IMG/VR virus record: IMGVR_UViG_3300032308_002775
Span: 62,001 to 126,000 of that record
From: a virus
DNA: 64,000 bases
Direction: 5' to 3' (one strand)
Made by a program: the position numbers and the translations under genes. Positions 33,104 to 61,652 of this stretch are shown piece by piece. Each line of letters starts with the position of its first letter. The first letter of the stretch is position 1. The notes beneath the pieces were generated by a model that was not told the origin of the DNA, ran no database searches, and was given only the letters and a program-made list of their open reading frames with translations.

Positions 33104-35005
33104 GTGCCAGGCCCGCGGCGGTTACTACTGATTCACAAGCGGGCGCCTGGAGACACGGCCGTCTTGACGGCCCTGGTCAGGGACATTGCCCTGACCCACC
33201 CCGGGCAGTTTCAGATCGGCGTCGATACGCACGCCGCGGCGCTTTGGGAGAACAACCCCTACATCGTCAGCGCCAAGGAACTCCGCGACCATAAAGGGGT
33301 CGAGCACCTCAAGCTGACCTACGGAAAGGGGCTGCGGGACCAGAATCACGAGACCGTCCACTTTCTTGCCTATTTTCACAGGGACTTTGAGGTCCAGGCT
33401 CGGGTTCGTGTCCCGCTGACCCTGCCCTACCCAGACCTGCACCTGTCGGCCGAGGAGCGCTCCCAGAGGCTCGTAGAGGGCCGCTACTGGGTGTTTCTGT
33501 CCGGGGGCAAGTCGGACTTCACCGCTAAGGTGTGGGGCCAGGCAGCGTGGCAGGAGACGGTCCGGCAGCTGAGCGCCCTGGGTATCCCCTGCGTTCAGAT
33601 CGGCGGTACCGAGAAGGGCCACTGGCACCCCGAGATCCAGGGCGCCCTGAACCTGGTCGGGCGCACCGGGCTGCGGGACTGGCTCCGCCTGATCTACCAC
33701 GCCGACGGGGTCATCTGCGGTGTCACCGGGGCCATGCACCTCGCCGCCGCGCTGCAGCGCCCCTGCGTCGTCCTGGCAGGCGGCCGGGAGGCCTGGTGGT
33801 GGGAGGCCTACGTTCGGGAGAACGCCGGGCTGGGCGGCCTGGAGACGGCGCAGAAGCTTACTGTGCCGCACCGCTACCTTCACACGATCGGGCTTCTGGA
33901 TTGCTGCCAGGCCCACGGCTGCTGGAAGAACAAGGTGCTGCCCCTGAACGGCGACCAGTCAATCTGTAAATACCCCGTCGTCCAGCCTGGCCAAGCAGTT
34001 CCTAAATGCCTGGATATGATTACGCCAGAGCACGTTGTCGAGGCCGTGATGAGCTATTACGAAGACCGCACTCTGCCGCCCATCAAGCCGCTGGCGGAGG
34101 TCACGCGTTACCGCCCCGCGGCGTCAGAGGAGCCCGCCCCAGCGCTGGTGCTGGTTCCGGACGCAAAGTTTGAGCGGGCCGAGGCAGGCGTTCCCAATAC
34201 CGTGATCCCCACCGGCGCTCCGGACAAAGATATCTTTGAGAATCCGGTCATCGGCGGGAAGTTCACTGTCTGCGTCCTGTTCTACGGGCCGAAGCAGTAC
34301 CACCCGCTTCACATGCGCTGCCTGAACTCGATTATCTCGACCTGCCCGCCCAACCGAATCGACCTGCGCGTCGGTTCCAACGAGCTGTGCGAGGAGACAG
34401 CCGCGGTGTTAAACCGGCTCGTCGACCACGGAATCGTCACCAAGCATTATCAGCACGCCGAGAACGCGCTGAAGTACCCGGTGATGCGGGAGATGTTCCA
34501 CGACTCGGAGTGCCCGATCACGACGAATTATCTGCTCTGGTTTGATGACGACTCGATCGCCGACAGAAACCAGCAGTGGCTCACGCTGCTGACGCAGACA
34601 ATCCTGGCCAACCCAACGGCCGGGCTGTTCGGCGCCGACATGACGATCCGCCTTGCGCCCAGTCAGCAGCAGCTCTACCGCACGCGGCCGTGGTTCAAGG
34701 GTCGACCTTTTCGTATGAAGAACAAGCGCCCGGCGCCAAACGGAGACAACACCGTGTTCGTGGCGGGCGGGTTCTTCTGCCTGAAGACCGAAGCGATGCG
34801 TGCCGCCGACGTGCCCGACGCGGCGCTTACGCACAACGGCGGCGACTATACAATCGGCGAACAGCTCTATCAGGCCGGTTATGAGGTCGTCGGATGGAAT
34901 CGACAGAAGCAGTTCATTCACACCTCGAGCGTCCCGCGGCGTGGCGAGAGCCAGCCGCATTTCGGCACGGAAAGGTGGCAGTCCACAACCGGAGACCGGC
35001 GATGA
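33104..35005 (+). CDS. Two-domain glycosyltransferase (GT9-like plus GT2-like)
   Basis: 633 residues from GTG 33104. Residues about 1-290 resemble heptosyltransferase-type GT9 enzymes (VFLSGGKSDFTAKVW, then HADGVICGVTGAMHLAAAL). About 385-610 resemble family-2 glycosyltransferases, with LLWFDDDSIAD as the DxD-type metal/nucleotide-sugar site. A Pro/Ala linker separates them. The fusion likely adds two sugars or acts in two steps, on the phage tail proteins or host surface. It contains the GATATC palindrome at 34225. The 3' end overlaps the next gene by ATGA. Confidence 0.7.
   Translation: MPGPRRLLLIHKRAPGDTAVLTALVRDIALTHPGQFQIGVDTHAAALWENNPYIVSAKELRDHKGVEHLKLTYGKGLRDQNHETVHFLAYFHRDFEVQARVRVPLTLPYPDLHLSAEERSQRLVEGRYWVFLSGGKSDFTAKVWGQAAWQETVRQLSALGIPCVQIGGTEKGHWHPEIQGALNLVGRTGLRDWLRLIYHADGVICGVTGAMHLAAALQRPCVVLAGGREAWWWEAYVRENAGLGGLETAQKLTVPHRYLHTIGLLDCCQAHGCWKNKVLPLNGDQSICKYPVVQPGQAVPKCLDMITPEHVVEAVMSYYEDRTLPPIKPLAEVTRYRPAASEEPAPALVLVPDAKFERAEAGVPNTVIPTGAPDKDIFENPVIGGKFTVCVLFYGPKQYHPLHMRCLNSIISTCPPNRIDLRVGSNELCEETAAVLNRLVDHGIVTKHYQHAENALKYPVMREMFHDSECPITTNYLLWFDDDSIADRNQQWLTLLTQTILANPTAGLFGADMTIRLAPSQQQLYRTRPWFKGRPFRMKNKRPAPNGDNTVFVAGGFFCLKTEAMRAADVPDAALTHNGGDYTIGEQLYQAGYEVVGWNRQKQFIHTSSVPRRGESQPHFGTERWQSTTGDRR
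34225..34238. repeat. 14-bp palindrome CAAAGATATCTTTG
   Basis: Perfect palindrome in the linker of the glycosyltransferase gene, read Asp-Lys-Asp-Ile-Phe with the A/T-ending codons AAA GAT ATC TTT. Member of the dispersed GATATC series. Confidence 0.6.
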
Positions 35006-46921: not shown

Positions 46922-47262
46922 TGACTGAAACTAAGCAAGCAGTTGGGTTTGAGGCCGTCAGGGCCGCCATCAAGCATTTTGAATCTATCCAGGTGATGAA
47001 TCGCGCGTATGGTGCCCTCGACACCGAACCTGATGGCGTTTTCCAGCGAATTCTCTGGGACGTGATCAACGACAAGGACACCAGCATCCCCATGAGCGGC
47101 GACGGCTGGGAGCTGTACACCAGCAGCATGGACTGCACCAAGGCGGCCGATGCGTTGCACCTGGCTGCAGTGGCCGCCGTGCAGGCAATCTTTGCCTGCC
47201 GAATTGCCGACCGCCGCAAGGTGCGTGAGTATCTCGAAGACTACTGCTGGCGGTGCAACTAG
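46918..47262 (+). CDS. Hypothetical protein
   Basis: 114 residues in an ATGA overlap with the previous gene. Ala-rich helical segment (TKAADALHLAAVAAVQAIF), with Cys at the C-terminus (DYCWRCN). No recognised domain. Confidence 0.57.
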   Translation: MMTETKQAVGFEAVRAAIKHFESIQVMNRAYGALDTEPDGVFQRILWDVINDKDTSIPMSGDGWELYTSSMDCTKAADALHLAAVAAVQAIFACRIADRRKVREYLEDYCWRCN

Positions 47263-47279
47263 CCGTGGGCCGCGCAAAC

Positions 47280-47723
47280 ATGAAACAGGCGCGCGAGCAC
47301 GTTAAGGCAGGCAACCGCTTTAGGGGCTCAAACGTCTTTGGTCGAAACCTGCACAACGGATCGTATTGCGTGTGGTCCTACACGGAAGCGTGGCCGCTTT
47401 ATTTGCGCTGGTGCGGCGAATGGTTTGGCAATTCCGGCTGGTATTCGCGTACAACACACCAGCACAAAGTAATACTGTGTCCGGGAGACAAGATCAGCTG
47501 GCTGCCGCGTTCGGTGATGCAGGTGTTCGTGGCGTACTGCGATTCGGCGTCTTGGCACTCAAAAGACACGCCGCTAGATTACGTGCTCGAGACCAGTGGC
47601 TTAATTCCGCCAAGGGCGGTGGTTGCGGTACCGCAGCCGAACATCCCCGAAGTCACGACGCATCTAGCTCGCGCTGAGGTTGACTGGGGCGCGGTTCGCA
47701 GGCGCCGGGTTATGCCGGTTTGA
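47280..47723 (+). CDS. Hypothetical aromatic-rich protein
   Basis: 147 residues from ATG 47280 (GTG 47253 or 47265 are alternatives). Rich in Trp, Tyr and His (YCVWSYTEAWPLYLRWCGEWF). The C-terminus AVRRRRVMPV resembles the ends of two later proteins (see findings). Its stop lies 6 bases from the convergent terminase stop. Function unknown. Confidence 0.55.
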   Translation: MKQAREHVKAGNRFRGSNVFGRNLHNGSYCVWSYTEAWPLYLRWCGEWFGNSGWYSRTTHQHKVILCPGDKISWLPRSVMQVFVAYCDSASWHSKDTPLDYVLETSGLIPPRAVVAVPQPNIPEVTTHLARAEVDWGAVRRRRVMPV

Positions 47724-51048: not shown

Positions 51049-51343
51049 CGACAAGACTCCGACAACCGAGATTACGATTGCCGCAGATAATGAGACGCTG
51101 CGGGATTTGCTCCAGAACCAATACGGCCGCTGCGAAGCGGGCGAAGTTCGCGCTGCGCTCGAGGGACAGTACTCGATCGTCTGGAACGAAGACGAGTTTC
51201 AGACGGCATTCGACCTTGTCGAGACAGCTCCGCCTTACGTCACTGTGGTAAACAAAGAAACCGGACAGCCCGGCACGCTGATCTACGTAGACAGCCCGCG
51301 GTTCTACTTCCTGTTCAACCCCGAGATCAACAATGGCGAATGA
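51041..51343 (+). CDS. Hypothetical protein
   Basis: 100 residues from ATG 51041, overlapping the previous stop. Beta-rich C-terminus (YVTVVNKETGQPGTLIYVD, RFYFLFNPE) and helical N-terminus. No domain recognised. Confidence 0.58.
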   Translation: MADDKTPTTEITIAADNETLRDLLQNQYGRCEAGEVRAALEGQYSIVWNEDEFQTAFDLVETAPPYVTVVNKETGQPGTLIYVDSPRFYFLFNPEINNGE

Positions 51344-51797
51344 GGCCAGGCATCATTTCGACACCGGCGCAGTTCGTTCCGCAGACGTCGACGAGGAGCG
51401 TTGGGACCTGATCAGCCCGATTGGTCTGCAAGCGCTTGCCCGCACCTATGCCGAGGGCGCAAGGAAGTTTGGCGCGGCAAACTGGGAGAACGGCATGCCC
51501 GTGACGGATCTACTCAACCACGGCATTGCCCACATCTTCAAGTTCCTGGCTGGCGACCGGGCGGAAGACCATCTGGCCCACGCGGCCTGGAACATTCTGG
51601 GAGCTATCCACTCACTGGAAAAGTGGCCGGAATTAAATGAGGGCCTGCTGCGTGGGCCGGGCTGCACTTGCCCACCCGCAGCCGCCACGCCCGCGGCCAA
51701 TGGCGACAATCCAAAGATATCTTTGGGACCAGACGAGGTTCGCCAAAGGCTGGAGCAACTCGCGAAGAAGCCGCCAGCCTACGGCAGCTCGACCTGA
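51333..51797 (+). CDS. dATP/dGTP diphosphohydrolase-like protein (DUF5664/MazG-like)
   Basis: 154 residues. The first 100 match the DUF5664-type pattern: FDTGAVRSADVDEERWDLIS, LARTYAEGARKFGAANWENG, LLNHGIAHIFKFLAGD and EDHLAHAAWNILGAIHSLE. Such proteins are linked to nucleotide pool control, some with dATP/dGTP hydrolysis in phages. The rest (about 105-154) is a Pro/Ala linker with a short helix, lacking the second domain seen in some relatives. GATATC palindrome at 51711. No PurZ-like gene is seen. Confidence 0.7.
   Translation: MANEARHHFDTGAVRSADVDEERWDLISPIGLQALARTYAEGARKFGAANWENGMPVTDLLNHGIAHIFKFLAGDRAEDHLAHAAWNILGAIHSLEKWPELNEGLLRGPGCTCPPAAATPAANGDNPKISLGPDEVRQRLEQLAKKPPAYGSST
51711..51726. 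repeat. 16-bp palindrome CCAAAGATATCTTTGG
   Basis: Perfect palindrome near the end of the DUF5664-like gene, read Pro-Lys-Ile-Ser-Leu. Longest of the AAAGATATCTTT copies. Confidence 0.65.
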
Positions 51798-51935: not shown

Positions 51936-51982
51936 TATCTCACGCAACCATGAAGGTTTTTTCTCGTAAGCGGAGTTCTTCC

Positions 51983-52363
51983 ATGCCCTTCAAGACCTAC
52001 CGGCCCAGCAAGTCCGACCAGGCACGCGCCGTCGCTGCTCAACTCAAAGCCGAAGGCAAACCCGTCCGACCGAAGACGGTGCTCGAGATTCTCGCCAAGC
52101 GCGGCGTCGTGATGGATCCCGGCCAATGCTCAAAGCTCACCGGCGAGTTCTGTAAGCGCCGCAAGCGCACCTGGACGCGCCGCGCCTCGAAGGTCCGGAC
52201 AGTGTCCAGCAACAACGGAGCGGCCAACGTCTGCGCCCCTGTTAAGACCTACAAGCACCTAGAGCTTGCCGCCGCGTTCGCCCAAAGTTGCGGCAGCGTT
52301 CACAAAGCGCAGCAGGCGCTAGCCGATCTGGCCACGATCGTCGAACCGTTTGTCAAGTCCTGA
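51983..52363 (+). CDS. Small DNA-binding-like protein (HTH family), copy 1
   Basis: 126 residues from ATG 51983 (GGAG upstream); ATG 51950 is an alternative. Residues about 8-60 look like a helix-turn-helix: SKSDQARAVAAQLKAEG, RPKTVLEILAKRGVVMDPGQ, then basic KRRKRTWTRR. The end (HLELAAAFAQSCGSVHKAQQ) resembles a short helical repeat. Related to the next gene. I associate this architecture with a planctomycete gene family; the function is unknown, perhaps DNA binding or nucleoid-related. Confidence 0.6.
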   Translation: MPFKTYRPSKSDQARAVAAQLKAEGKPVRPKTVLEILAKRGVVMDPGQCSKLTGEFCKRRKRTWTRRASKVRTVSSNNGAANVCAPVKTYKHLELAAAFAQSCGSVHKAQQALADLATIVEPFVKS

Positions 52364-52407: not shown

Positions 52408-53142
52408 ATGTCTGACACCGAAGTCGACCCCATCTGGGACACCACCGAGCCGTTTGCCGAGCAGGCGCGCCCGGAACCAAAGTTGTCCAGGAAGAAAAAG
52501 TCCGGCACGGAGGCCGAAATCGTTCTGCCCGAAACCGACGAGCTGCCAGAGCCTGTAGAACCAGGCGAGCTAATCGACGGATCGGAGGACGACATTTCCG
52601 CGCTTGAGGAACAGGACCCCACTGTTCCAATCGAGGTCGCTGTTGACCTCGAAGACCGTGCCCGTGGCAACGCCGAAAAGGCGGCTGCCCGAAAGAGGAG
52701 TGAACCCATGTCCGAGAAGACCAAGACCAAGGCCGAATGGATCCGCGACGAGATCGCCCAGCGCAAGGCCGACGGCGTCGAAACCATCCGCCCCCGCGAC
52801 ATCATCGCGGCGCTGGCGGAGAAGGGCGTCAAGGTCACGGCGCCCCAGGTCAGCGTGACCCTGCGCGATTTCGACAAGCCGAAGGCGGCCAAGCCCGCGA
52901 AGACCATCAAGGCGGGCAAGCTGGTTGCGGCAACCAAGGCTGCTGAGAAGGCCAAGTCCCGGGAGCCCAAGCGGGCCACGGCACGGCTCAGCGCCGTTTC
53001 GGCAAAGCAGGCGCCCGCGGCCAACAAGCCGTCCTACGAGGCGCTGGAGGCCACGGCTGAGTTCGTGAAGACCAACGGCGGCCTGGAGACGGCGCGCCAG
53101 CTGCTCGATGCCTACGCGAAGTTGTTCAACCCGGCGGGCTGA
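52408..53142 (+). CDS. Small DNA-binding-like protein (HTH family), copy 2
   Basis: 244 residues. An acidic N-terminal half (about 1-95, VLPETDELPEPVEPGELIDG), then the same core as copy 1: TKAEWIRDEIAQRKADGVE, RPRDIIAALAEKGVKVTAPQ, followed by Lys/Ala-rich linker and a C-terminal ALEATAEFVKTNGGLETARQ. ATG 52710 (SEKTKTK) is an internal alternative that would remove the acidic part. Likely a chromosome- or regulation-related DNA-binding protein; the family is common in planctomycetes in my knowledge. Confidence 0.6.
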   Translation: MSDTEVDPIWDTTEPFAEQARPEPKLSRKKKSGTEAEIVLPETDELPEPVEPGELIDGSEDDISALEEQDPTVPIEVAVDLEDRARGNAEKAAARKRSEPMSEKTKTKAEWIRDEIAQRKADGVETIRPRDIIAALAEKGVKVTAPQVSVTLRDFDKPKAAKPAKTIKAGKLVAATKAAEKAKSREPKRATARLSAVSAKQAPAANKPSYEALEATAEFVKTNGGLETARQLLDAYAKLFNPAG

Positions 53143-53286: not shown

Positions 53287-53568
53287 ATGCCTACAGCCTG
53301 CCCCCTGCGCCCTCGTCGCGCCTATCAGGCCATGACGATGCCCGCGGGGACCATCAAACGTATTCATGTGAACCAGCACATTATCAAGGCCAACGTCTCC
53401 AACCAGACCGACGACCAAGCGGTCACCGTCCAGTGGCGCGGCAAGAGCTACATCGGCCGCGACGTCCAGATCAAGGGCGCCAGCACCGTGATGCAGCGCA
53501 TGGCCAAACCGCTTTCCTGCGGCGCCCGCATCTGGATCGAGACCCGCGCCGAAGTGGAAATCCTATGA
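53287..53568 (+). CDS. Hypothetical basic protein
   Basis: 93 residues from ATG 53287 with GGAGG upstream; ATG 53332 is an alternative, giving a 78-residue beta-rich core. Segments IKRIHVNQHIIKANVSN and VTVQWRGKSYIGRDVQI suggest a small beta barrel. First gene of the accessory operon that includes DUF1257-DUF2997-AAA. Function unknown. Confidence 0.6.
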   Translation: MPTACPLRPRRAYQAMTMPAGTIKRIHVNQHIIKANVSNQTDDQAVTVQWRGKSYIGRDVQIKGASTVMQRMAKPLSCGARIWIETRAEVEIL

Positions 53569-53879
53569 GTCGCTATCACGAGACCCAGCGCGACGAGGAC
53601 CTCGGCAGCCTGACTAACGCGCTGCAGTACCTCGACCAGATTCGCGCTACCTTTGGCGACGTGCTCGCCATTCCCGAAGTGATCACGATCCAGGACGTCA
53701 TGGCCATCGCCCTGGACACGACCAAGGGACCCCAGCTCATCGGCGACGTCTGCAGCCGCGACGAGATCGTCCATATCCTCCGGTCCTTCGCCGACAACCC
53801 GTGCGGCGACCCGGCCCTGATTGCGCAGTACGCGCTCAACGACTATCGCGAAACCCAAAAACTCACCAACAAGGAGTAA
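53565..53879 (+). CDS. Hypothetical protein
   Basis: 104 residues starting in an ATGA overlap with the previous gene. Helical and acidic (LTNALQYLDQIRATFGD, HILRSFADNP). It directly precedes the DUF1257 gene, so it may be a component of that system. No domain recognised. Confidence 0.6.
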   Translation: MSRYHETQRDEDLGSLTNALQYLDQIRATFGDVLAIPEVITIQDVMAIALDTTKGPQLIGDVCSRDEIVHILRSFADNPCGDPALIAQYALNDYRETQKLTNKE

Positions 53880-53882
53880 CGC

Positions 53883-54245
53883 ATGAGCCACATCGTGCAG
53901 ATTAAGACGGAAGTGAAGGATGAAATGGCGGTCCGCGCCGCCTGCCTGCGCCTCAAGTGGGAGCAGCCCGTGTTTGGCAAGCACCGCGTATTCAGCGTCG
54001 ACCGCGAAGGCCTCGGGGTGACGATTCCCGGCTGGCACTTCCCGGTCGTCGTCAACATGTCGACCGGCGCGCTCGACTACGACAACTACAACGGCCACTG
54101 GGGCGAGCAGAAGCTGCTCGATCAGTTTCTCCAGGCCTATACGATCGAGAAGGCCAAGCTCGAGGCGCAGAAGATGGGTCACTCGGTGTATGAAGAGCCG
54201 ATGGCCGATGGTTCGATCAAGCTCACCGTCACCGTGGAGGCCTGA
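53883..54245 (+). CDS. DUF1257 (Ycf35-like) protein
   Basis: 120 residues that match the Ycf35/DUF1257 family by eye: SHIVQIKTEVKDEMAVRAA, PGWHFPVVVNMSTGALDYD, DNYNGHWGEQKLLDQFLQAY and KMGHSVYEEPMADGSIKL. The family is found in cyanobacteria, plastids and planctomycetes, next to DUF2997 and an AAA ATPase, as here. Its biochemical role is not established. The gene is followed within 5 bases by DUF2997. It belongs with 54251 and 54452. Confidence 0.85.
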   Translation: MSHIVQIKTEVKDEMAVRAACLRLKWEQPVFGKHRVFSVDREGLGVTIPGWHFPVVVNMSTGALDYDNYNGHWGEQKLLDQFLQAYTIEKAKLEAQKMGHSVYEEPMADGSIKLTVTVEA

Positions 54246-54250
54246 CCAAC

Positions 54251-54442
54251 ATGACCAAGATCATCGAAATCATTGTTTCCCCCAAGGGCGAAACCAAGCT
54301 CGAGACCAAGGGCTTTGCGGGCAACAGCTGCCAGGAAGCCACGCGAGCCCTCGAGGCTGCGCTGGGCGCCAAGACCGACGAATCCCTGACCGGTGAGTAT
54401 TACACCGAGGTCAACACCAACCAGCTCGACGTCCAGAACTAA
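54251..54442 (+). CDS. DUF2997-like small protein
   Basis: 63 residues. KIIEIIVSPKGETKLETKGF, then SCQEATRALEAALGA and a short acidic tail: the pattern of DUF2997 proteins that accompany Ycf35 and Ycf46-like AAA ATPases. Small, beta-alpha fold by strand pattern. AGGAG precedes the next gene. Function unknown; possibly a partner or adaptor of the ATPase. Confidence 0.8.
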   Translation: MTKIIEIIVSPKGETKLETKGFAGNSCQEATRALEAALGAKTDESLTGEYYTEVNTNQLDVQN

Positions 54443-54451
54443 GGAGACCCG

Positions 54452-55945
54452 ATGAATCTTTCCCAGCAGATCAAGGAACTCGTGTGCGCGGGCTTCAGCG
54501 GCATCTGGGTCGACACTCAGGAGTCGGACGACGCCGTGGCCACCGTCAAGAAGCTCTGCGAGGAGCGGGACTGGGGCTTTGAGGTCTGGGACCTCGACCG
54601 CCAGCTCTGCGTCCACAACGCCACGCCCGCTCCCGGCCCTGTCCAGGCGCTCCGCTGGCTCGACACGCCGGACGCGCGGGCCAAGAGCACGCAGCTCCTG
54701 CTGCTCAAGAACTTCCACAAGTATCTGCCCAACCCCGAGGTGATGCAGGTCCTCCAAAACCGCGTTATTACCGGCAAGGCGATCGGCCAGCACGTGATCG
54801 TGATGAGCCCCGTGCTCCAGCTCCAGCCGGAGATCGAGAAGCTTTTCACGATCGTTCACCACGAGCTGCCGGACCGCGCGCAGCTCACGACGATTGCCAA
54901 CGAACTGTTCACCGGCGAGGGCAACACGTTCGAAAAGCCCGCCGACGAGGTGATCGCTAGCGTGATCGACGCCGCCAGCGGGATGACCCGTCTGGAGGCC
55001 GAGAACGCGTTTGCGCTCTCGCTGGTCCGGCACAACACCCTGAGCCCGGACGTGATCTGGAATCTCAAAGCGCAAACCCTGGAGAAGGCTGGCACCCTGG
55101 CCCTCTACCGGGGCGACGCCAGCTTCGACGGCCTGGGCGGCCTCGATAACCTGAAGCAGTTTTGCCTGCGCGCCATGAAGCGCCAGGGCGAGGCTGACCC
55201 CGAGCGCCGTCCTCGCGGCGTGCTCCTGCTCTCGCCTCCGGGCTGCGGCAAGTCGCAGTTCGCCAAGGCGCTGGGCAACGAGGTCGGGCGACCCACAGTC
55301 GTCCTCGACTTCGGCGCGCTGATGGGCAAGTTTGTCGGCGAGTCGGAGGGCAACATCCGCCGGGCGCTCGCCCTGGTGGACGCGATGGCGCCCTGCATCC
55401 TGTTTGCCGACGAGATCGAGAAGGCGCTCTCCGGCGTGGGCAGCTCGGGTCAGACCGACTCGGGCGTCACGGCGCGCCTCTTCGGCACGTTCCTCACGTG
55501 GCTCAACGACCACAAGTCTGACGTGTTCTTCATCGGCACCTGCAATGACGCCAGCAAGCTCCCGCCCGAGTTCACTCGTGCGGAGCGCTTCGACGGCGTG
55601 TTCTTTGTTGACCTGCCGACGGCCGACGCCCGAAACTACATCTGGGACCTGTATCTCAAGAAGTTTGGCCTGGACAAGAACCAGGCCCGCCCGGACGACA
55701 CGAACTGGACCGGCGCCGAGATCAAGAGCTGCTGCCGCTTGGCGGCGTTGCTCGACGTCTCGCTCATCGAGGCCGCGTTCAACGTGGTGCCGGTGGCTGT
55801 GACCAACGCCGAGGCGATCACCAACCTGCGCACGTGGGCTGACGGCCGTTGCCTGTCCGCCGACAACAAGGGTTATTTCAAGAAGGCCGCCGTGAAGGCC
55901 AACGAGCCTGGCACCCGCCGTCGGGTTGCGCCCAGTTCTAACTGA
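54452..55945 (+). CDS. AAA ATPase, Ycf46-like
   Basis: 497 residues. The N-terminal about 250 residues are a family-specific domain. Walker A SPPGCGKSQ (about residue 261), Walker B CILFADEIEKAL (about 314) and sensor-type IGTCNDASKLPPEFTRAERFD (about 355-375, with an arginine finger-like RAERFD) are complete. The ATPase presumably remodels a protein or nucleic-acid complex. The DUF1257-DUF2997-AAA order is the typical genomic cassette. The stop is followed by a GATATC palindrome. Confidence 0.87.
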   Translation: MNLSQQIKELVCAGFSGIWVDTQESDDAVATVKKLCEERDWGFEVWDLDRQLCVHNATPAPGPVQALRWLDTPDARAKSTQLLLLKNFHKYLPNPEVMQVLQNRVITGKAIGQHVIVMSPVLQLQPEIEKLFTIVHHELPDRAQLTTIANELFTGEGNTFEKPADEVIASVIDAASGMTRLEAENAFALSLVRHNTLSPDVIWNLKAQTLEKAGTLALYRGDASFDGLGGLDNLKQFCLRAMKRQGEADPERRPRGVLLLSPPGCGKSQFAKALGNEVGRPTVVLDFGALMGKFVGESEGNIRRALALVDAMAPCILFADEIEKALSGVGSSGQTDSGVTARLFGTFLTWLNDHKSDVFFIGTCNDASKLPPEFTRAERFDGVFFVDLPTADARNYIWDLYLKKFGLDKNQARPDDTNWTGAEIKSCCRLAALLDVSLIEAAFNVVPVAVTNAEAITNLRTWADGRCLSADNKGYFKKAAVKANEPGTRRRVAPSSN

Positions 55946-55956
55946 TAGATATCTAT
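55945..55956. repeat. 12-bp palindrome ATAGATATCTAT
   Basis: Perfect palindrome overlapping the end of the AAA gene and the gap after it. Member of the GATATC-centred series. Confidence 0.5.
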
Positions 55957-56008
55957 TGAGTTCCCCCTGGGCGCGACTGTGTAGTCTCGCCTTTTCTCAG
56001 GAGACCCC

Positions 56009-56971
56009 ATGAGCACAACTCTCGACGAAGCCCCGCCAGAAATTCCGGCGGGCGACGGCGCGCCAGTCGCCGAGGCCGCGCAGGAAATGCGCGCTTCGAT
56101 GGGCGCCGTCGAGCTGCGTTTCACCTGGCTCGGAACCCAGCGCAAGCTGGCCGACAGCCAGACCCGGCAGGCGGCCGACACCTTCCACGCCGATGCCAAG
56201 AGCGTCAGGGCCAGCAAGGTCCTCATTGACGCCAAGCACCCGGCGTATCGTGCGGCCACCGTCATTCGCAGTCAGGCCCGGGGTTTTCTCCGCGGTATCA
56301 GTCTGCCTTATCCGCAGGAAGGCATCCGCCTGATCAAGTACGACGACATCTCGCGCTTCGAGGCGCAGATGCTGGAGTTTCGCGAACGGCTCGACAATGC
56401 CGTGGCGACGCTCCAGGAACACTACGACGCGATCAAGGCCGACGCCCGCGAGCGGCTGGGCGACCTCTACAACGCGGCCGACTACCCGGCCAGCTTGGAG
56501 GGCGTGTTCAGTCTCACCTGGGATTATCCCAGCATCGAGCCGCCGGAGTACCTGCTCAACTACAACCCGGGGCTGTACCGGCAGCAGCAGGCGCGCGTTC
56601 AGGAGCGTTTCGAGCAGGCCGTGGTCCTGGCCGAAAACGCCTTTGGCGAGCGGCTCCAGGAACTGATCGACCACCTGCTCGAGCGGCTGCGGGGCGTGGA
56701 GACGGGCGAAGCCAAGCGGTTCAGTAACTCGACCGTGGAAAACTTCGCCGAGTTTGCCGCCGAGTTCCGCCGGATGAACATCCGCGGAAACACCCAGCTG
56801 GAAAGCCTGATCAACCAGGCGCAGTCGATTGTGTCCGGCGTCGACTCCAAAGCCATCAAGGCCAACGGAGACCTTCGTCAGACGTTGTCGACTCAAATGG
56901 GTGAAGTGCGCGACGCGCTTGATACGATCCTGGCCAACCAGCCTCGGCGCCGCGTCATGCGGATGGACTGA
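56009..56971 (+). CDS. Conserved hypothetical protein (accessory module)
   Basis: 320 residues. Pattern WLGTQRKLADSQTRQAADTF, then KVLIDAKHPAYRAATVIRSQ and LPYPQEGIRLIKYDDISRFE, DLYNAADYPASLEGVFSLTW, and long helices. Together with the DUF1257 cassette this pattern occurs in planctomycete genomes and their phages, to my knowledge, possibly near DUF3150. It ends RRRVMRMD, similar to two other proteins here. A coiled-coil structure is likely. Confidence 0.6.
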   Translation: MSTTLDEAPPEIPAGDGAPVAEAAQEMRASMGAVELRFTWLGTQRKLADSQTRQAADTFHADAKSVRASKVLIDAKHPAYRAATVIRSQARGFLRGISLPYPQEGIRLIKYDDISRFEAQMLEFRERLDNAVATLQEHYDAIKADARERLGDLYNAADYPASLEGVFSLTWDYPSIEPPEYLLNYNPGLYRQQQARVQERFEQAVVLAENAFGERLQELIDHLLERLRGVETGEAKRFSNSTVENFAEFAAEFRRMNIRGNTQLESLINQAQSIVSGVDSKAIKANGDLRQTLSTQMGEVRDALDTILANQPRRRVMRMD

Positions 56972-58017
56972 TGGATCCGGCCGCCAAGATTCTCGACCCG
57001 ATGATGCCCGACCTTGCGAATCCTCCCCAGGTTCGCAAGCGTCGGGCACCGAAACACGATTTCAAGGACGGCAAGGGCCGTGTATTTGCGCATCGTCACG
57101 ACAACGGCGGCGGTTGGGTTGCCGACACGGCCTGGGTAGCGCCGACAGCGAAGGTCACACGCAACGCCCAGGTTTTCGACTACGCCCGCGTTCACGACAA
57201 CTGCGAGATTACCGGCCAAGCCCGCGTCTTCAACCGCGCGCGGCTCTTCGATAGCGTTGTACTCTCGCAGCGCGCTGCCGTACATGGCCTCGCCATGGTG
57301 CGCAACAGCGCCACAGTCAAAGACAACTGCCAGATCTTCGGCAGTGCGCATGTGTGCGGTAACACCCACCTAAACAACAACGTGCACATCTATGACCACG
57401 CCGTAGTTATCAATTCCAATCTTTGCGGTCCGCGCCGCCAAGACTTTTTTGGCGTTGTTCGTGGCGCCGCGCGCGTGCTTAATTCGCGGTTTCACAACTG
57501 GTTCTCTGTGAGCGATGCAAGTTTGCTTGAAAACGCGCACATCCAGAACGTTGTAACGACATACTCAGCGCGTGTTGTCAATTCGTCCGTGTTCACCAAC
57601 ATTTCGTGGACTTACCACTCGTGGCTCAACGGACAGATCAAAGACCTACCAGAGAATCACGCGCCATACAACGCAGATTCAGTGATTCAGGTGGTTGGTA
57701 CCGTTATCAACTCCGCCATCAACACCACGCCTTGGCGAGTCCATGAGCGCGCGCAGTTTGTAAATTGCACACTTATGTGCGCAATGACCGGCCTGCCAAC
57801 CGACAACACAGCGTTGCACGACGTGTTAGACCCGTTTGACCGCGCTATGGTGGGCGCGGAAGCGCGGCAGCTAGAAGCTATTACCAACGCGGTAAACCGA
57901 ATCATGAATCCGGCAGCCGTTGCGGCAACAGCGCCAATCCCGGCCATCGCCGCGCGTGGAGAAGCCAACTTCGAAGCTGTGCGCCAGCGCCGCATCATGC
58001 GGATGGAGGAAACGTGA
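56971..58017 (+). CDS. Left-handed beta-helix (hexapeptide-repeat) protein
   Basis: 348 residues overlapping the previous stop by one base. Residues about 48-160 hold repeated six-residue turns (AWVAPTAKVTRNAQVFDYAR, DNCEITGQARVFNRARLFDS, SAHVCGNTHLNNNVHIYDHA), the signature of left-handed beta-helices used by acyltransferases and some structural proteins. Catalytic His or transferase residues are not apparent, so a structural or scaffold role is also possible. The end VRQRRIMRMEET matches other proteins here. Slightly lower GC than neighbours. Confidence 0.7.
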   Translation: MDPAAKILDPMMPDLANPPQVRKRRAPKHDFKDGKGRVFAHRHDNGGGWVADTAWVAPTAKVTRNAQVFDYARVHDNCEITGQARVFNRARLFDSVVLSQRAAVHGLAMVRNSATVKDNCQIFGSAHVCGNTHLNNNVHIYDHAVVINSNLCGPRRQDFFGVVRGAARVLNSRFHNWFSVSDASLLENAHIQNVVTTYSARVVNSSVFTNISWTYHSWLNGQIKDLPENHAPYNADSVIQVVGTVINSAINTTPWRVHERAQFVNCTLMCAMTGLPTDNTALHDVLDPFDRAMVGAEARQLEAITNAVNRIMNPAAVAATAPIPAIAARGEANFEAVRQRRIMRMEET

Positions 58018-58286
58018 ACCTGTACATCCGACCCGACGGCACACTCCAGGCGATCTACGGCGAGGACGTCGATCTGGGCGCGCTTGGCGCCGTAAACGTC
58101 CGCCGCGCGTCTCATGTCGAGCCCGCGGCCAACGGACCGGGCTGGACTGCCGACCTTACCCCAGTCGGCGGTCCGGTCCTGGGGCCGTTCCAGAAACGCA
58201 GCGAGGCCCTGACGGCCGAGATCGCGTGGCTGGACACACGCCTGGCCAACGGACCAGTCACGGTCAGCGGAGGCGGCGGTGAGTAG
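58014..58286 (+). CDS. Small conserved protein of the accessory module
   Basis: 90 residues from GTG 58014 (GGAGG upstream). Contains VRRASHVEPAANGPGWTADL, then PVGGPVLGPFQKRSEALTAE, a pattern I know from small planctomycete proteins beside similar genes. Beta-rich; function unknown. Overlaps both neighbours in GTGA-type junctions. Confidence 0.65.
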   Translation: MNLYIRPDGTLQAIYGEDVDLGALGAVNVRRASHVEPAANGPGWTADLTPVGGPVLGPFQKRSEALTAEIAWLDTRLANGPVTVSGGGGE

Positions 58287-59847: not shown

Positions 59848-60087
59848 ATGCCCACGTTTCGCATCAACGTGTCTGAACAGCACCACAAAGAATTCGTCGT
59901 CACCTGCGACGACCGCCGAAAGGCTGAGGAGCTAGCGGCCAGCATCTTGACTGACGGAGAAATAATGTCGGCCTTGACTACAAAGCCGATTCTTCGCACA
60001 CACGACTCTAAGTCGACTGACTGCCAGATCAACGAAGAGCCGACCGGTTACTACGACTCCGTAGTCGAAACCGCGCTCAACGGTTGA
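59848..60087 (+). CDS. Hypothetical protein
   Basis: 79 residues from ATG 59848; the longer frame from 59797 runs into the terminator. N-terminus FRINVSEQHHKEFVVTCDDR is beta-rich, followed by a short helix (KAEELAASILTDGE). No domain recognised. Confidence 0.58.
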   Translation: MPTFRINVSEQHHKEFVVTCDDRRKAEELAASILTDGEIMSALTTKPILRTHDSKSTDCQINEEPTGYYDSVVETALNG

Positions 60088-60110
60088 CCCCTTCTAACCC
60101 CAAGGACACC

Positions 60111-61652
60111 ATGGCACGACTGACCAAGCGCCAGAAGACGATCATTTCCGATGTCGTGAGCCGCTGGGCTCACACTATCAGCGGCACCGAGCCAGAAACC
60201 GTCGAGCGGGTGCAGGCCATTCTGGACCCGGTCTATCGCAGAGAGAAACTCATTCGCCACGTTAAGGTCAAGAAAAAGAAGAAGAACGACACCCGCTGGC
60301 GCGGCTGGCGCACGATTACAAAACGCCTGTCAGCGCCAAAGATCCACGTCGTTCACTCGCCGATCGCGTTCCGAATCGCCGCAGGTGTTCTCCGCGGGCG
60401 GCTTTCCAAGAAGCGCGCCAAAGAGATCTGCCAAGCTTTCGGCGTCACTGACACGTTTGTTGACGGTTTGAAACGGGACACGCTGTTCCGGACCCGCCAG
60501 GACCCGCACTGGTACCGAAACTGCTCAGCGCTGACTGAGGCGTGGGACGAGACGATGCGCGACCCGATTCGAGGAGCGCTCTTGGCCTTGTTTGACGAAG
60601 ACGAAAACGGCGTGTCGCAAAACGAGGCGCTGGCTCGCCGCGCTCGCCGAAGACGACGCGGCGAAACGCGCGCTGACGCAACCAGAGAACGATATCGCGC
60701 CATGTTCACCAAGATGTTTGGCGACCGCGTGCCCGCGTCGCGAAACCTGCTGAAACGAAATCTGGAAAACAACAACCTGTGGCAGGTAATGTTGCCAATT
60801 AACAGACAAAATTTTGGCGCAACAGATAGCCGCACTGCGCTGGGCAACTTCTGGCAGAACGAGAACGGCGGCGGTGCCTCACGCGAGCTGCTTGAAATTC
60901 CGCACAGCCCCGGCGAGCGCACGTCGCTGCACATTCGCCTGGAGTCCGCTACTCTGGATGAAAGCTGGACGACAACCGCCGTCGACGCTGAGATCATGTG
61001 CGCCGGATTGCAGTTTCGTGAACACACGCAAACTTGGCGCAATGACATGCTCCACGCAGCTTCGGTCGTGATGACGTTCCACACGCAGGCCCTGGTGTTG
61101 CTAGGCCGCCCTGCGCTGCACTGCAACCGGGAAGGCGAGCTGCACAACGATGAAGGTCCGGCCGTGGTCTACGCTGACGGCGCCAAGCAGTACTACCTCG
61201 ACGGTCATGCCCTGGGCGCACTCGGCGACAAGATCGTCGAAAAGCCCGAAACTCTCACGCTTGCCGACATTAACGGCGAGCGCAACGAAGAGGTCAAACG
61301 GCTGGCAATCTCGGCTTACGGCTGGTCGCGCTATCTCGACGAGATCGGCGCCGAGGTGATTGACCGGCGCCGAAACGACGTGGACAACACCGTCGAAGCG
61401 CTCGTTCGAATTGCGGAAAATGTCCCGTCGGCGCGTTGGGACAATTTTAATCGCCGCATGCTCGAAACCAACACCACGATTTACAAGAACAAGTTGGTAT
61501 TGGCTTGCCGCTCCACGGCGCGGCAATATTTCCTGTCCGTGCCTGATTTCATCAATACCTGCGAAGCGGGCCAGCAGTGGCTCCATGCAGGTGCAGCCAC
61601 CGATGTCGTGGACGTTATGAATCATCCCGTGCGCCTGATTGGCGCGTCCTGA
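60111..61652 (+). CDS. DUF6745-like protein
   Basis: 513 residues from ATG 60111 (AAGGA upstream); the frame from 60084 begins TTG. The N-terminal half is basic with helical segments and a Lys run (KVKKKKKND), about 300 residues. From about 340 on it matches DUF6745 by eye: RPALHCNREGELHNDEGPAV, YYLDGHALG, IVEKPETLTLADINGERNEE, AYGWSRYLDEIGAE. That domain is common in actinobacteria and planctomycetes with unknown role. It precedes the 61673 gene with a similar background. Confidence 0.65.
   Translation: MARLTKRQKTIISDVVSRWAHTISGTEPETVERVQAILDPVYRREKLIRHVKVKKKKKNDTRWRGWRTITKRLSAPKIHVVHSPIAFRIAAGVLRGRLSKKRAKEICQAFGVTDTFVDGLKRDTLFRTRQDPHWYRNCSALTEAWDETMRDPIRGALLALFDEDENGVSQNEALARRARRRRRGETRADATRERYRAMFTKMFGDRVPASRNLLKRNLENNNLWQVMLPINRQNFGATDSRTALGNFWQNENGGGASRELLEIPHSPGERTSLHIRLESATLDESWTTTAVDAEIMCAGLQFREHTQTWRNDMLHAASVVMTFHTQALVLLGRPALHCNREGELHNDEGPAVVYADGAKQYYLDGHALGALGDKIVEKPETLTLADINGERNEEVKRLAISAYGWSRYLDEIGAEVIDRRRNDVDNTVEALVRIAENVPSARWDNFNRRMLETNTTIYKNKLVLACRSTARQYFLSVPDFINTCEAGQQWLHAGAATDVVDVMNHPVRLIGAS

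What the first reader, a model, noticed from the sequence alone, without database searches (positions are those of the whole stretch)
53883..58286. Phage carries a DUF1257-DUF2997-AAA (Ycf35/Ycf46-like) cassette
Three adjacent genes match the DUF1257, DUF2997 and Ycf46-like AAA ATPase families in their usual order, with intact Walker motifs in the ATPase. The families are known from cyanobacteria, plastids and planctomycetes, and their role is still unclear. Finding them as a compact operon inside a tailed-phage genome with further planctomycete-type neighbours (56009, 58014) is unusual and may point to a phage-encoded complex that acts on host metabolism or nucleic acids.
Basis: partly seen in the sequence, partly recalled or inferred. 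Interest (0 to 1): 0.75.

Follow-up and report, generated by a model that had tools for sequence, protein, structure and literature searches.

The report
Phage AAA machine with shared C-tails
A tailed phage carries a small gene set around an ATP-driven protein machine of the Ycf46/Vps4 type; the set turns out to be widespread on phages and plasmids, and the machine and several unrelated neighbouring proteins end in the same short tail, which looks like a common docking signal that nobody seems to have described.

Summary
53883 is DUF1257-like, 54251 is DUF2997, and 54452 is an intact AAA+ ATPase, in a tight operon on a 153.7-kb phage record with contractile-tail genes. The "unusual in a phage" reading does not hold. 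At least 154 IMG/VR stretches encode a relative of the ATPase. Named phages (Rhizobium L338C, Rhodobacter RcKickapoo, Tunturi_3, Agrobacterium JP1) and plasmids, including IncA/C resistance plasmids, carry versions of the cassette, and phage and plasmid copies intermingle in the tree. Gene 56009 is a divergent DUF3150 protein, and 58014 belongs to a recurrent companion family.

The new result is a shared C-terminal tail, roughly R-[RK]-[ILVM]-x-[ILVMF]. It occurs on the ATPase (RRRVAPSSN), on 56009 (RRRVMRMD) and on the hexapeptide protein 56971 (RRIMRMEET), and in other genomes on many unrelated neighbours. In loci fetched after the motif was noticed, 10 neighbours carry it at their very end, against 0.64 expected. 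The opposite strand gives 0 against 1.05. Tails of non-homologous proteins match within a locus better than between loci (p<0.001). DUF3150 proteins of MoxR/vWA operons lack it (0 of 5). Most likely it is a docking peptide that gathers AAA and clients on one receptor, perhaps DUF1257·DUF2997. The receptor and the purpose are inferred, not shown.

The parts
53565..53879 (+). 104-aa ORF upstream of DUF1257; no known family; conserved only in near relatives
53883..54245 (+). DUF1257 (Ycf35)-like protein, 120 aa, invariant S-H after the start Met; alpha/beta model, pLDDT 86.5; no C-terminal tail motif
54251..54442 (+). DUF2997 protein, 63 aa; no C-terminal tail motif
54452..55945 (+). AAA+ ATPase, classical Cdc48/Vps4-like AAA module (about 230-460) after an N-terminal region; ends in tail TRRRVAPSSN
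55916..55942 (+). C-terminal tail of the AAA protein (RRRVAPSSN)
56009..56971 (+). DUF3150-like helical protein, 320 aa; model pLDDT 87, no PDB fold match; last residues disordered
56945..56968 (+). C-terminal tail of 56009 (RRRVMRMD); its second Arg (R314) is one of three invariant columns among 36 homologues
56971..58017 (+). hexapeptide (left-handed beta-helix) repeat protein, 348 aa; ends in tail RQRRIMRMEET
57988..58014 (+). C-terminal tail of the hexapeptide protein (RRIMRMEET)
58014..58286 (+). 90-aa companion protein; family of 24 ORFs next to the cassette in other phages and in the Manganitrophus plasmid
47253..47723 (+). 156-aa protein about 7 kb upstream ending VRRRRVMPV; tail conserved in two relatives at 42-48% identity; probable further tail carrier
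47697..47720 (+). C-terminal tail of the 47253 protein (RRRRVMPV)

Best explanation
The cassette encodes a dedicated AAA+ remodelling machine of a mobile family found on phages and plasmids. Its core is AAA, DUF1257, DUF2997, usually a DUF3150-like protein and a small 58014-type protein. Shown by sequence: the ATPase and several non-homologous proteins of the same locus end in a short, flexible tail R-[RK]-[ILVM]-x-[ILVMF]. The tail sits at the very C-terminus and takes on the same local variant in all carriers of one locus. Inferred: the tail is a docking peptide for one common receptor, so that the ATPase and its partners or clients (56009, 56971, perhaps 47253) are brought together and the ATPase can remodel or assemble the clients. 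Inferred more weakly: the receptor is the DUF1257-DUF2997 pair, which never carries the tail, stays next to the ATPase and is naturally fused in one locus. In this phage the clients may be virion or assembly proteins; this last step is a guess.
For: Tail shared by AAA, 56009 and the hexapeptide protein in the window and in its relatives. Strict motif at the C-end of neighbours that are neither AAA nor DUF3150: 15 against about 0.9 expected; in loci fetched after the motif was noticed, 10 against 0.64 (P 2e-9); opposite strand 0 against 1.05. Carriers have no common family: hexapeptide protein, HhH membrane protein, other membrane proteins, a fibre-like protein, small unknown proteins. Within-locus tail matching: p=0.0009 with one locus per AAA lineage, 0.008 with a reduced alphabet. 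Hold-out plasmids: a neighbour with the R-type tail in 3 of 5 loci. DUF3150 proteins in MoxR/vWA operons have no tail, 0 of 5. R314 of the tail is one of only three invariant columns among 36 DUF3150-like homologues. The tail is disordered in a confident model. Tail by loose motif: DUF1257 0 of 44, DUF2997 0 of 37, DUF3150-like 33 of 46; by a still looser motif, AAA 77 of 85. Natural DUF1257-DUF2997 fusion in L113. AAA catalytic motifs intact.
Against: No binding, structure of a complex or function has been shown. In the Corndog-like lineage the ATPase keeps an RxLDL tail although no DUF1257 or DUF2997 was found beside it; a small 'MPCDT' protein sits there instead. That argues against DUF1257-DUF2997 as the only receptor. 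In Bacillus and Paenibacillus plasmids the Arg is lost and only a DLDL/DLELF-like end remains. Only 49 of 97 AAA proteins match the loose regex. The permutation tests are not fully corrected for relatedness, and neighbours were called with a simple ORF finder.
Confidence: 0.5

Rival explanations
1. The tail is a client handle gripped directly by the ATPase (substrate signal, like the MuA tail read by ClpX); the ATPase's own tail regulates itself. DUF1257 and DUF2997 are regulators, not the receptor.
For: MuA ends in RRKKAI, a C-terminal ClpX signal of the same basic-hydrophobic kind (PMC8138137). AAA tails persist where DUF1257/DUF2997 were not found. The tail is disordered.
Against: An ATPase bearing its own substrate signal in nearly every lineage (77 of 85 by a loose motif) is odd for a simple substrate tag.
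Confidence: 0.25
2. The tails are degrons for a host protease, so that all cassette proteins are short-lived together.
For: Resemblance to the MuA/ClpX signal.
Against: Hosts are too diverse (cyanobacteria, Bacillota, Actinomycetota, Pseudomonadota, Nitrospirota) for one host protease code to fit each locus, yet tails match within loci. DUF1257 and DUF2997 of the same operon lack the tail.
Confidence: 0.08
3. The tails are coincidental: basic, hydrophobic C-termini are common in such genomes and the motif is short.
For: The motif is loose; about 2-3% of unrelated C-termini match the loose regex.
Against: Strict motif 15 against 0.9 expected at the C-end beside the cassette, none on the opposite strand; within-locus matching; hold-out hits; absence in MoxR/vWA DUF3150.
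Confidence: 0.05
4. Auxiliary metabolic or photosynthesis-related cassette taken from cyanobacteria (Ycf35/Ycf46), acting on host metabolism.
For: In cyanobacteria DUF2997 and Ycf35 sit with ferredoxin fed7 (PMC4284462), and Fe-S proteins lie beside several plasmid versions.
Against: No Fe-S or metabolic gene in the phage cassette. Versions occur on plasmids of many non-photosynthetic bacteria and in phages of Mycobacterium, Rhizobium and others.
Confidence: 0.07
5. A conflict system (AAA of the IetAS/SgiAT type with a toxin).
For: The AAA domain hits IetA profiles (E 6e-16) in PADLOC.
Against: Only the generic AAA part aligns; the score is far under the NCBIfam cut-off (49.7 against 510); no serine protease partner; no PADLOC hit for the other cassette proteins tested.
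Confidence: 0.05

Closest known systems
AAA-DUF1257-DUF2997 (Ycf46/Ycf35-type) cassettes of plasmids and phages (Manganitrophus plasmid, IncA/C plasmids, Rhizobium phage L338C)
   Same: Same families side by side; the Manganitrophus plasmid also has DUF3150 and the 58014-type protein
   Different: Gene order differs; the window adds a hexapeptide-repeat protein with the tail; no function is published for any of them in the library searched
MoxR-DUF3150-vWA operons of plasmids and cyanophages
   Same: An AAA ATPase next to a DUF3150 relative of 56009
   Different: Another AAA family, a vWA partner instead of DUF1257/DUF2997, and no C-terminal tail
Mycobacterial Mpa/Bpa with shared C-terminal GQYL docking motif on the 20S proteasome
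   Same: An ATPase and a non-homologous protein share a C-terminal docking motif (PMC4254994); the logic proposed here
   Different: Other motif, no proteasome; receptor here unknown; works-like only, not a member
MuA-type C-terminal ClpX signal (RRKKAI)
   Same: Basic-hydrophobic C-terminal signal for an AAA+ machine (PMC8138137)
   Different: Here also on the ATPase itself and matched per locus

Membership tests
Classical AAA ATPases (Cdc48/Vps4/Ycf46 group) | AAA domain with Walker A, Walker B, sensor 1 and Arg finger | tested here: met
   PF00004 5e-26; PPGCGKS at 262, ILFADE at 316, GTCND at 362, RAERFD at 376
Ycf46 proper (cyanobacterial/plastid orthologue) | Orthology to Ycf46 | not tested
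   No Ycf46 sequence was placed in the tree
DUF1257 (PF06868) | Score over the Pfam gathering cut-off | tested here: inconclusive
   15.8 bits against 22.2 for the window protein; homologues in the same position pass; same family by iterative search
DUF2997 (PF11211) | Score over the cut-off | tested here: met
   61 bits against 24.1
DUF3150 (PF11348), gene 56009 | Score over the cut-off | tested here: not met
   No PF11348 hit for 56009; joined to a PF11348-positive protein only by iterative profile search and tblastn: a relative, not a formal member
IetAS / SgiAT conflict systems | IetA ATPase with subtilisin-like protease partner | tested here: not met
   IetA score far under cut-off, no protease gene in the cassette
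MoxR-DUF3150-vWA systems | MoxR ATPase and vWA protein | tested here: not met
   Classical AAA instead of MoxR; no vWA hit among the cassette genes
Proteasome-type C-terminal docking (HbYX/GQYL) | C-terminal hydrophobic-Tyr-X docking into a 20S core | tested here: not met
   Tails are RRRVMRMD and similar, no Tyr; analogy only

The most novel reading that the evidence does not exclude
A widespread mobile AAA+ machine uses a short C-terminal peptide code: the ATPase and any protein that is to be handled by it carry the same R-[RK]-hydrophobic-x-hydrophobic tail, matched locus by locus, and clients are exchanged freely (hexapeptide, fibre-like and membrane proteins) by acquiring the tail.
Probability: 0.4. 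Interest if true: 0.85.

Novelty: new variant of a known kind. Interest (0 to 1): 0.6.

Why it matters
DUF1257, DUF2997 and DUF3150 have no known function, although they occur from plastids to resistance plasmids; nearly 600 IncA/C-type plasmid records carry a version of the ATPase at 90% identity or more. The shared tail gives a first concrete, testable handle. It predicts which proteins belong to the machine, where they bind, and a simple peptide-binding experiment. It would also be a clear case of a client code for an AAA+ machine that can be passed between unrelated proteins.

Tried and rejected
PDB sequence searches for DUF1257, DUF2997 and 56009: nothing significant. Fold searches of 56009 and DUF1257 against the PDB: best E 0.096 and 0.29, not significant. 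A DUF2997 genome-wide scan failed with the diverse alignment and gave one locus with a narrow one. In Nitrospirota the family occurs in 4 of 148 genomes, so it is accessory. A mixed DUF1257+DUF2997 alignment for the fusion was misaligned and not folded. The tail of 24936 (GRKVV) was dropped because it is only partly conserved in relatives. Profile comparison of the Corndog-type +1 protein with 56009 is only suggestive, and the 'MPCDT' protein does not match DUF1257 or DUF2997. The IMG/VR scan with the IncA ATPase found no relative. Literature: no paper on DUF3150; DUF1257/DUF2997 only in passing, e.g. beside fed7.

Full report
OBSERVATION. The window is positions 62001-126000 of a 153,669-bp IMG/VR virus record. 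Tail-sheath and baseplate-wedge hits make it a phage with a contractile tail. 54251 is DUF2997 (61 bits, cut-off 24.1) and 54452 is AAA (PF00004, 5e-26). 53883 alone is a weak DUF1257 hit (15.8 bits, cut-off 22.2), but iterative search places it with DUF1257 proteins found beside AAA/DUF2997 elsewhere. The operon is tight and each gene has a ribosome-binding site. About 20 near relatives on contigs of up to 205 kb keep the order DUF1257-DUF2997-AAA-56009-hexapeptide-58014 where the contig is long enough.

DISTRIBUTION. The cassette is not rare in phages. An alignment query found 154 IMG/VR stretches encoding a relative of the ATPase, of which 80 were fetched. Among named phages DUF1257 and/or DUF2997 stand near the ATPase in Rhizobium phage L338C, Rhodobacter phage RcKickapoo, Tunturiibacter phage Tunturi_3 and Agrobacterium phage JP1. 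Plasmid versions occur in Candidatus Manganitrophus, Paenibacillus, Nostoc, Geminocystis, Paenarthrobacter, Rhodococcus, Bacillus, Rhizobium and IncA/C plasmids. In a tree of 85 ATPases the window's subfamily is one clade (support 100), but plasmid and phage copies are mixed, with at least six changes forced for plasmids. In Nitrospirota DUF2997 occurs in 4 of 148 genomes. This is a mobile, accessory module.

COMPOSITION. Iterative profile searches in 106 loci found 46 relatives of 56009, 44 DUF1257, 37 DUF2997 and 24 relatives of 58014. 56009 itself does not hit PF11348, but it is linked to DUF3150 through a tblastn match to a cyanophage DUF3150 protein (2e-11) and through a PF11348-positive Manganitrophus protein in the same profile family. 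DUF1257 and DUF2997 are fused in L113 (10230-10742), which points to a physical pair. The AlphaFold model of 56009 is confident (pLDDT 87), mostly helical, and unlike any solved structure at a significant E-value. DUF1257 is a small alpha/beta protein, also without a match.

THE TAIL. Reading C-termini showed that three non-homologous proteins of the cassette end alike: AAA ..TRRRVAPSSN, 56009 ..PRRRVMRMD, 56971 ..QRRIMRMEET. Relatives change them together, for example L035 with RRIMNKPSVN, RRIVPMND and RRIVPV. The same happens far away: IncA plasmid ATPase GRKLAIGD with two membrane-type proteins ending KRKIILD; Javan368 RKVLV and RKIKI; L077 RKINV, RKINI, RKINV; L116 RKLSI, RKLEV, RKLEV.

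TESTS. (a) Position: among 704 same-strand neighbours within 3.5 kb that are neither AAA nor DUF3150-like, the strict motif R[RK][LIVM].[LIVMF] ends within two residues of the C-terminus 15 times; its density elsewhere in the same proteins predicts 0.9. In the loci fetched after the motif was noticed the figures are 10 against 0.64 (P 2e-9); opposite-strand ORFs give 0 against 1.05. Genes further off on the same strand also show some excess (5 against 0.78), mostly in one phage (L148), so clients may lie away from the cassette. (b) Matching: tails of the ATPase and of a non-homologous neighbour are more alike within a locus than between loci (one locus per lineage, n=13: p=0.0009; reduced alphabet p=0.008; wider sets). 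(c) Hold-out: five plasmid loci fetched later gave an R-type tail on a neighbour in three; in the two Bacillota loci the ATPase and a neighbour share a DLDL/DLELF-like end without Arg (this last reading is post hoc). (d) Context: DUF3150 proteins of MoxR-vWA operons have no such tail, 0 of 5. (e) Conservation: in 36 DUF3150-like proteins with identities down to 12% the only invariant columns are Y159, P160 and R314, the last being in the tail. (f) By the loose motif DUF1257 and DUF2997 lack the tail (0 of 44, 0 of 37) and the DUF3150-like family has it in 33 of 46; by a still looser one the ATPase has it in 77 of 85.

MECHANISM. The economical reading is a docking peptide for a shared receptor. 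The precedent is mycobacterial Bpa, which was found because it shares the C-terminal GQYL of the proteasomal ATPase Mpa without other homology, and which binds the same 20S core (PMC4254994). The tail-free, adjacent and sometimes fused DUF1257-DUF2997 pair is the first candidate receptor. Against it, the Corndog-like lineage keeps the ATPase tail although neither protein was found there. The alternative is that the ATPase reads the tails itself, as ClpX reads the RRKKAI of MuA (PMC8138137). What the phage gains is open. A hexapeptide protein and, in relatives, a fibre-like protein among the carriers suggest assembly work, but this is inference.

KNOWN AND NEW. No paper in the library treats DUF3150, and DUF1257/DUF2997 appear only in passing, e.g. 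beside fed7 in Synechocystis. The families are known; the shared tail was not found described in the searches made, which do not cover subscription journals.

Noticed in passing
L032:7160-7947 (also L024, L034, L036; probably L033, whose contig ends early): In relatives of the window phage the ATPase gene is interrupted at the Walker B codons by a group I intron (RF00028, 72 bits) with an HNH endonuclease-like ORF; the window copy has no intron.
   Followed up: partly
window 51333-51797: dATP/dGTP diphosphohydrolase N-terminal domain (PF18909, 6e-15), a domain linked to 2-aminoadenine DNA; no PurZ-like adenylosuccinate synthetase (PF00709) in the 153.7-kb record.
   Followed up: partly
L053 and plasmid hits: Nearly 600 plasmid records, many of them conjugative enterobacterial plasmids of the IncA/C type, carry the ATPase at 90% identity or more; in the one read (L053) it has DUF2997 and two membrane-type proteins ending KRKIILD.
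   Followed up: partly
L050, L052, L056, L162, L163, L164, L166: Plasmid versions of the cassette repeatedly lie beside a 4Fe-4S single-cluster or cluster-binding protein; cyanobacterial DUF2997-ycf35 lies beside ferredoxin fed7.
   Followed up: no
L094, L103, L106, L108, L111, L126: In the Corndog-like lineage a 106-122 aa protein starting MPCDT or similar and ending near GG.[ST]W..H follows the ATPase and its partner, in the place of DUF1257/DUF2997; no profile link found.
   Followed up: partly
window 51950-52363 and 52408-53142: Two tandem genes with related C-terminal halves, upstream of the cassette and kept in near relatives; no Pfam or NCBIfam hit.
   Followed up: no
L012:7557-7838, L014:7566-7850, L039:8177-8434: Small fibre-like protein (GELAYNFADG..LYIG) with tail RRRLLPFE just after the ATPase in relatives; absent between 55945 and 56009 of the window.
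   Followed up: partly
window 33104-35005 and 60084-61652: Heptosyltransferase-like glycosyltransferase (PF01075, 6e-13) and a DUF6745 protein (3e-14) on the phage.
   Followed up: no
L048:8126-9012: The DUF3150 gene of the Manganitrophus plasmid is split into two overlapping ORFs; the second ends RPKRKIRILPEAQEAVA, a tail-like end.
   Followed up: no
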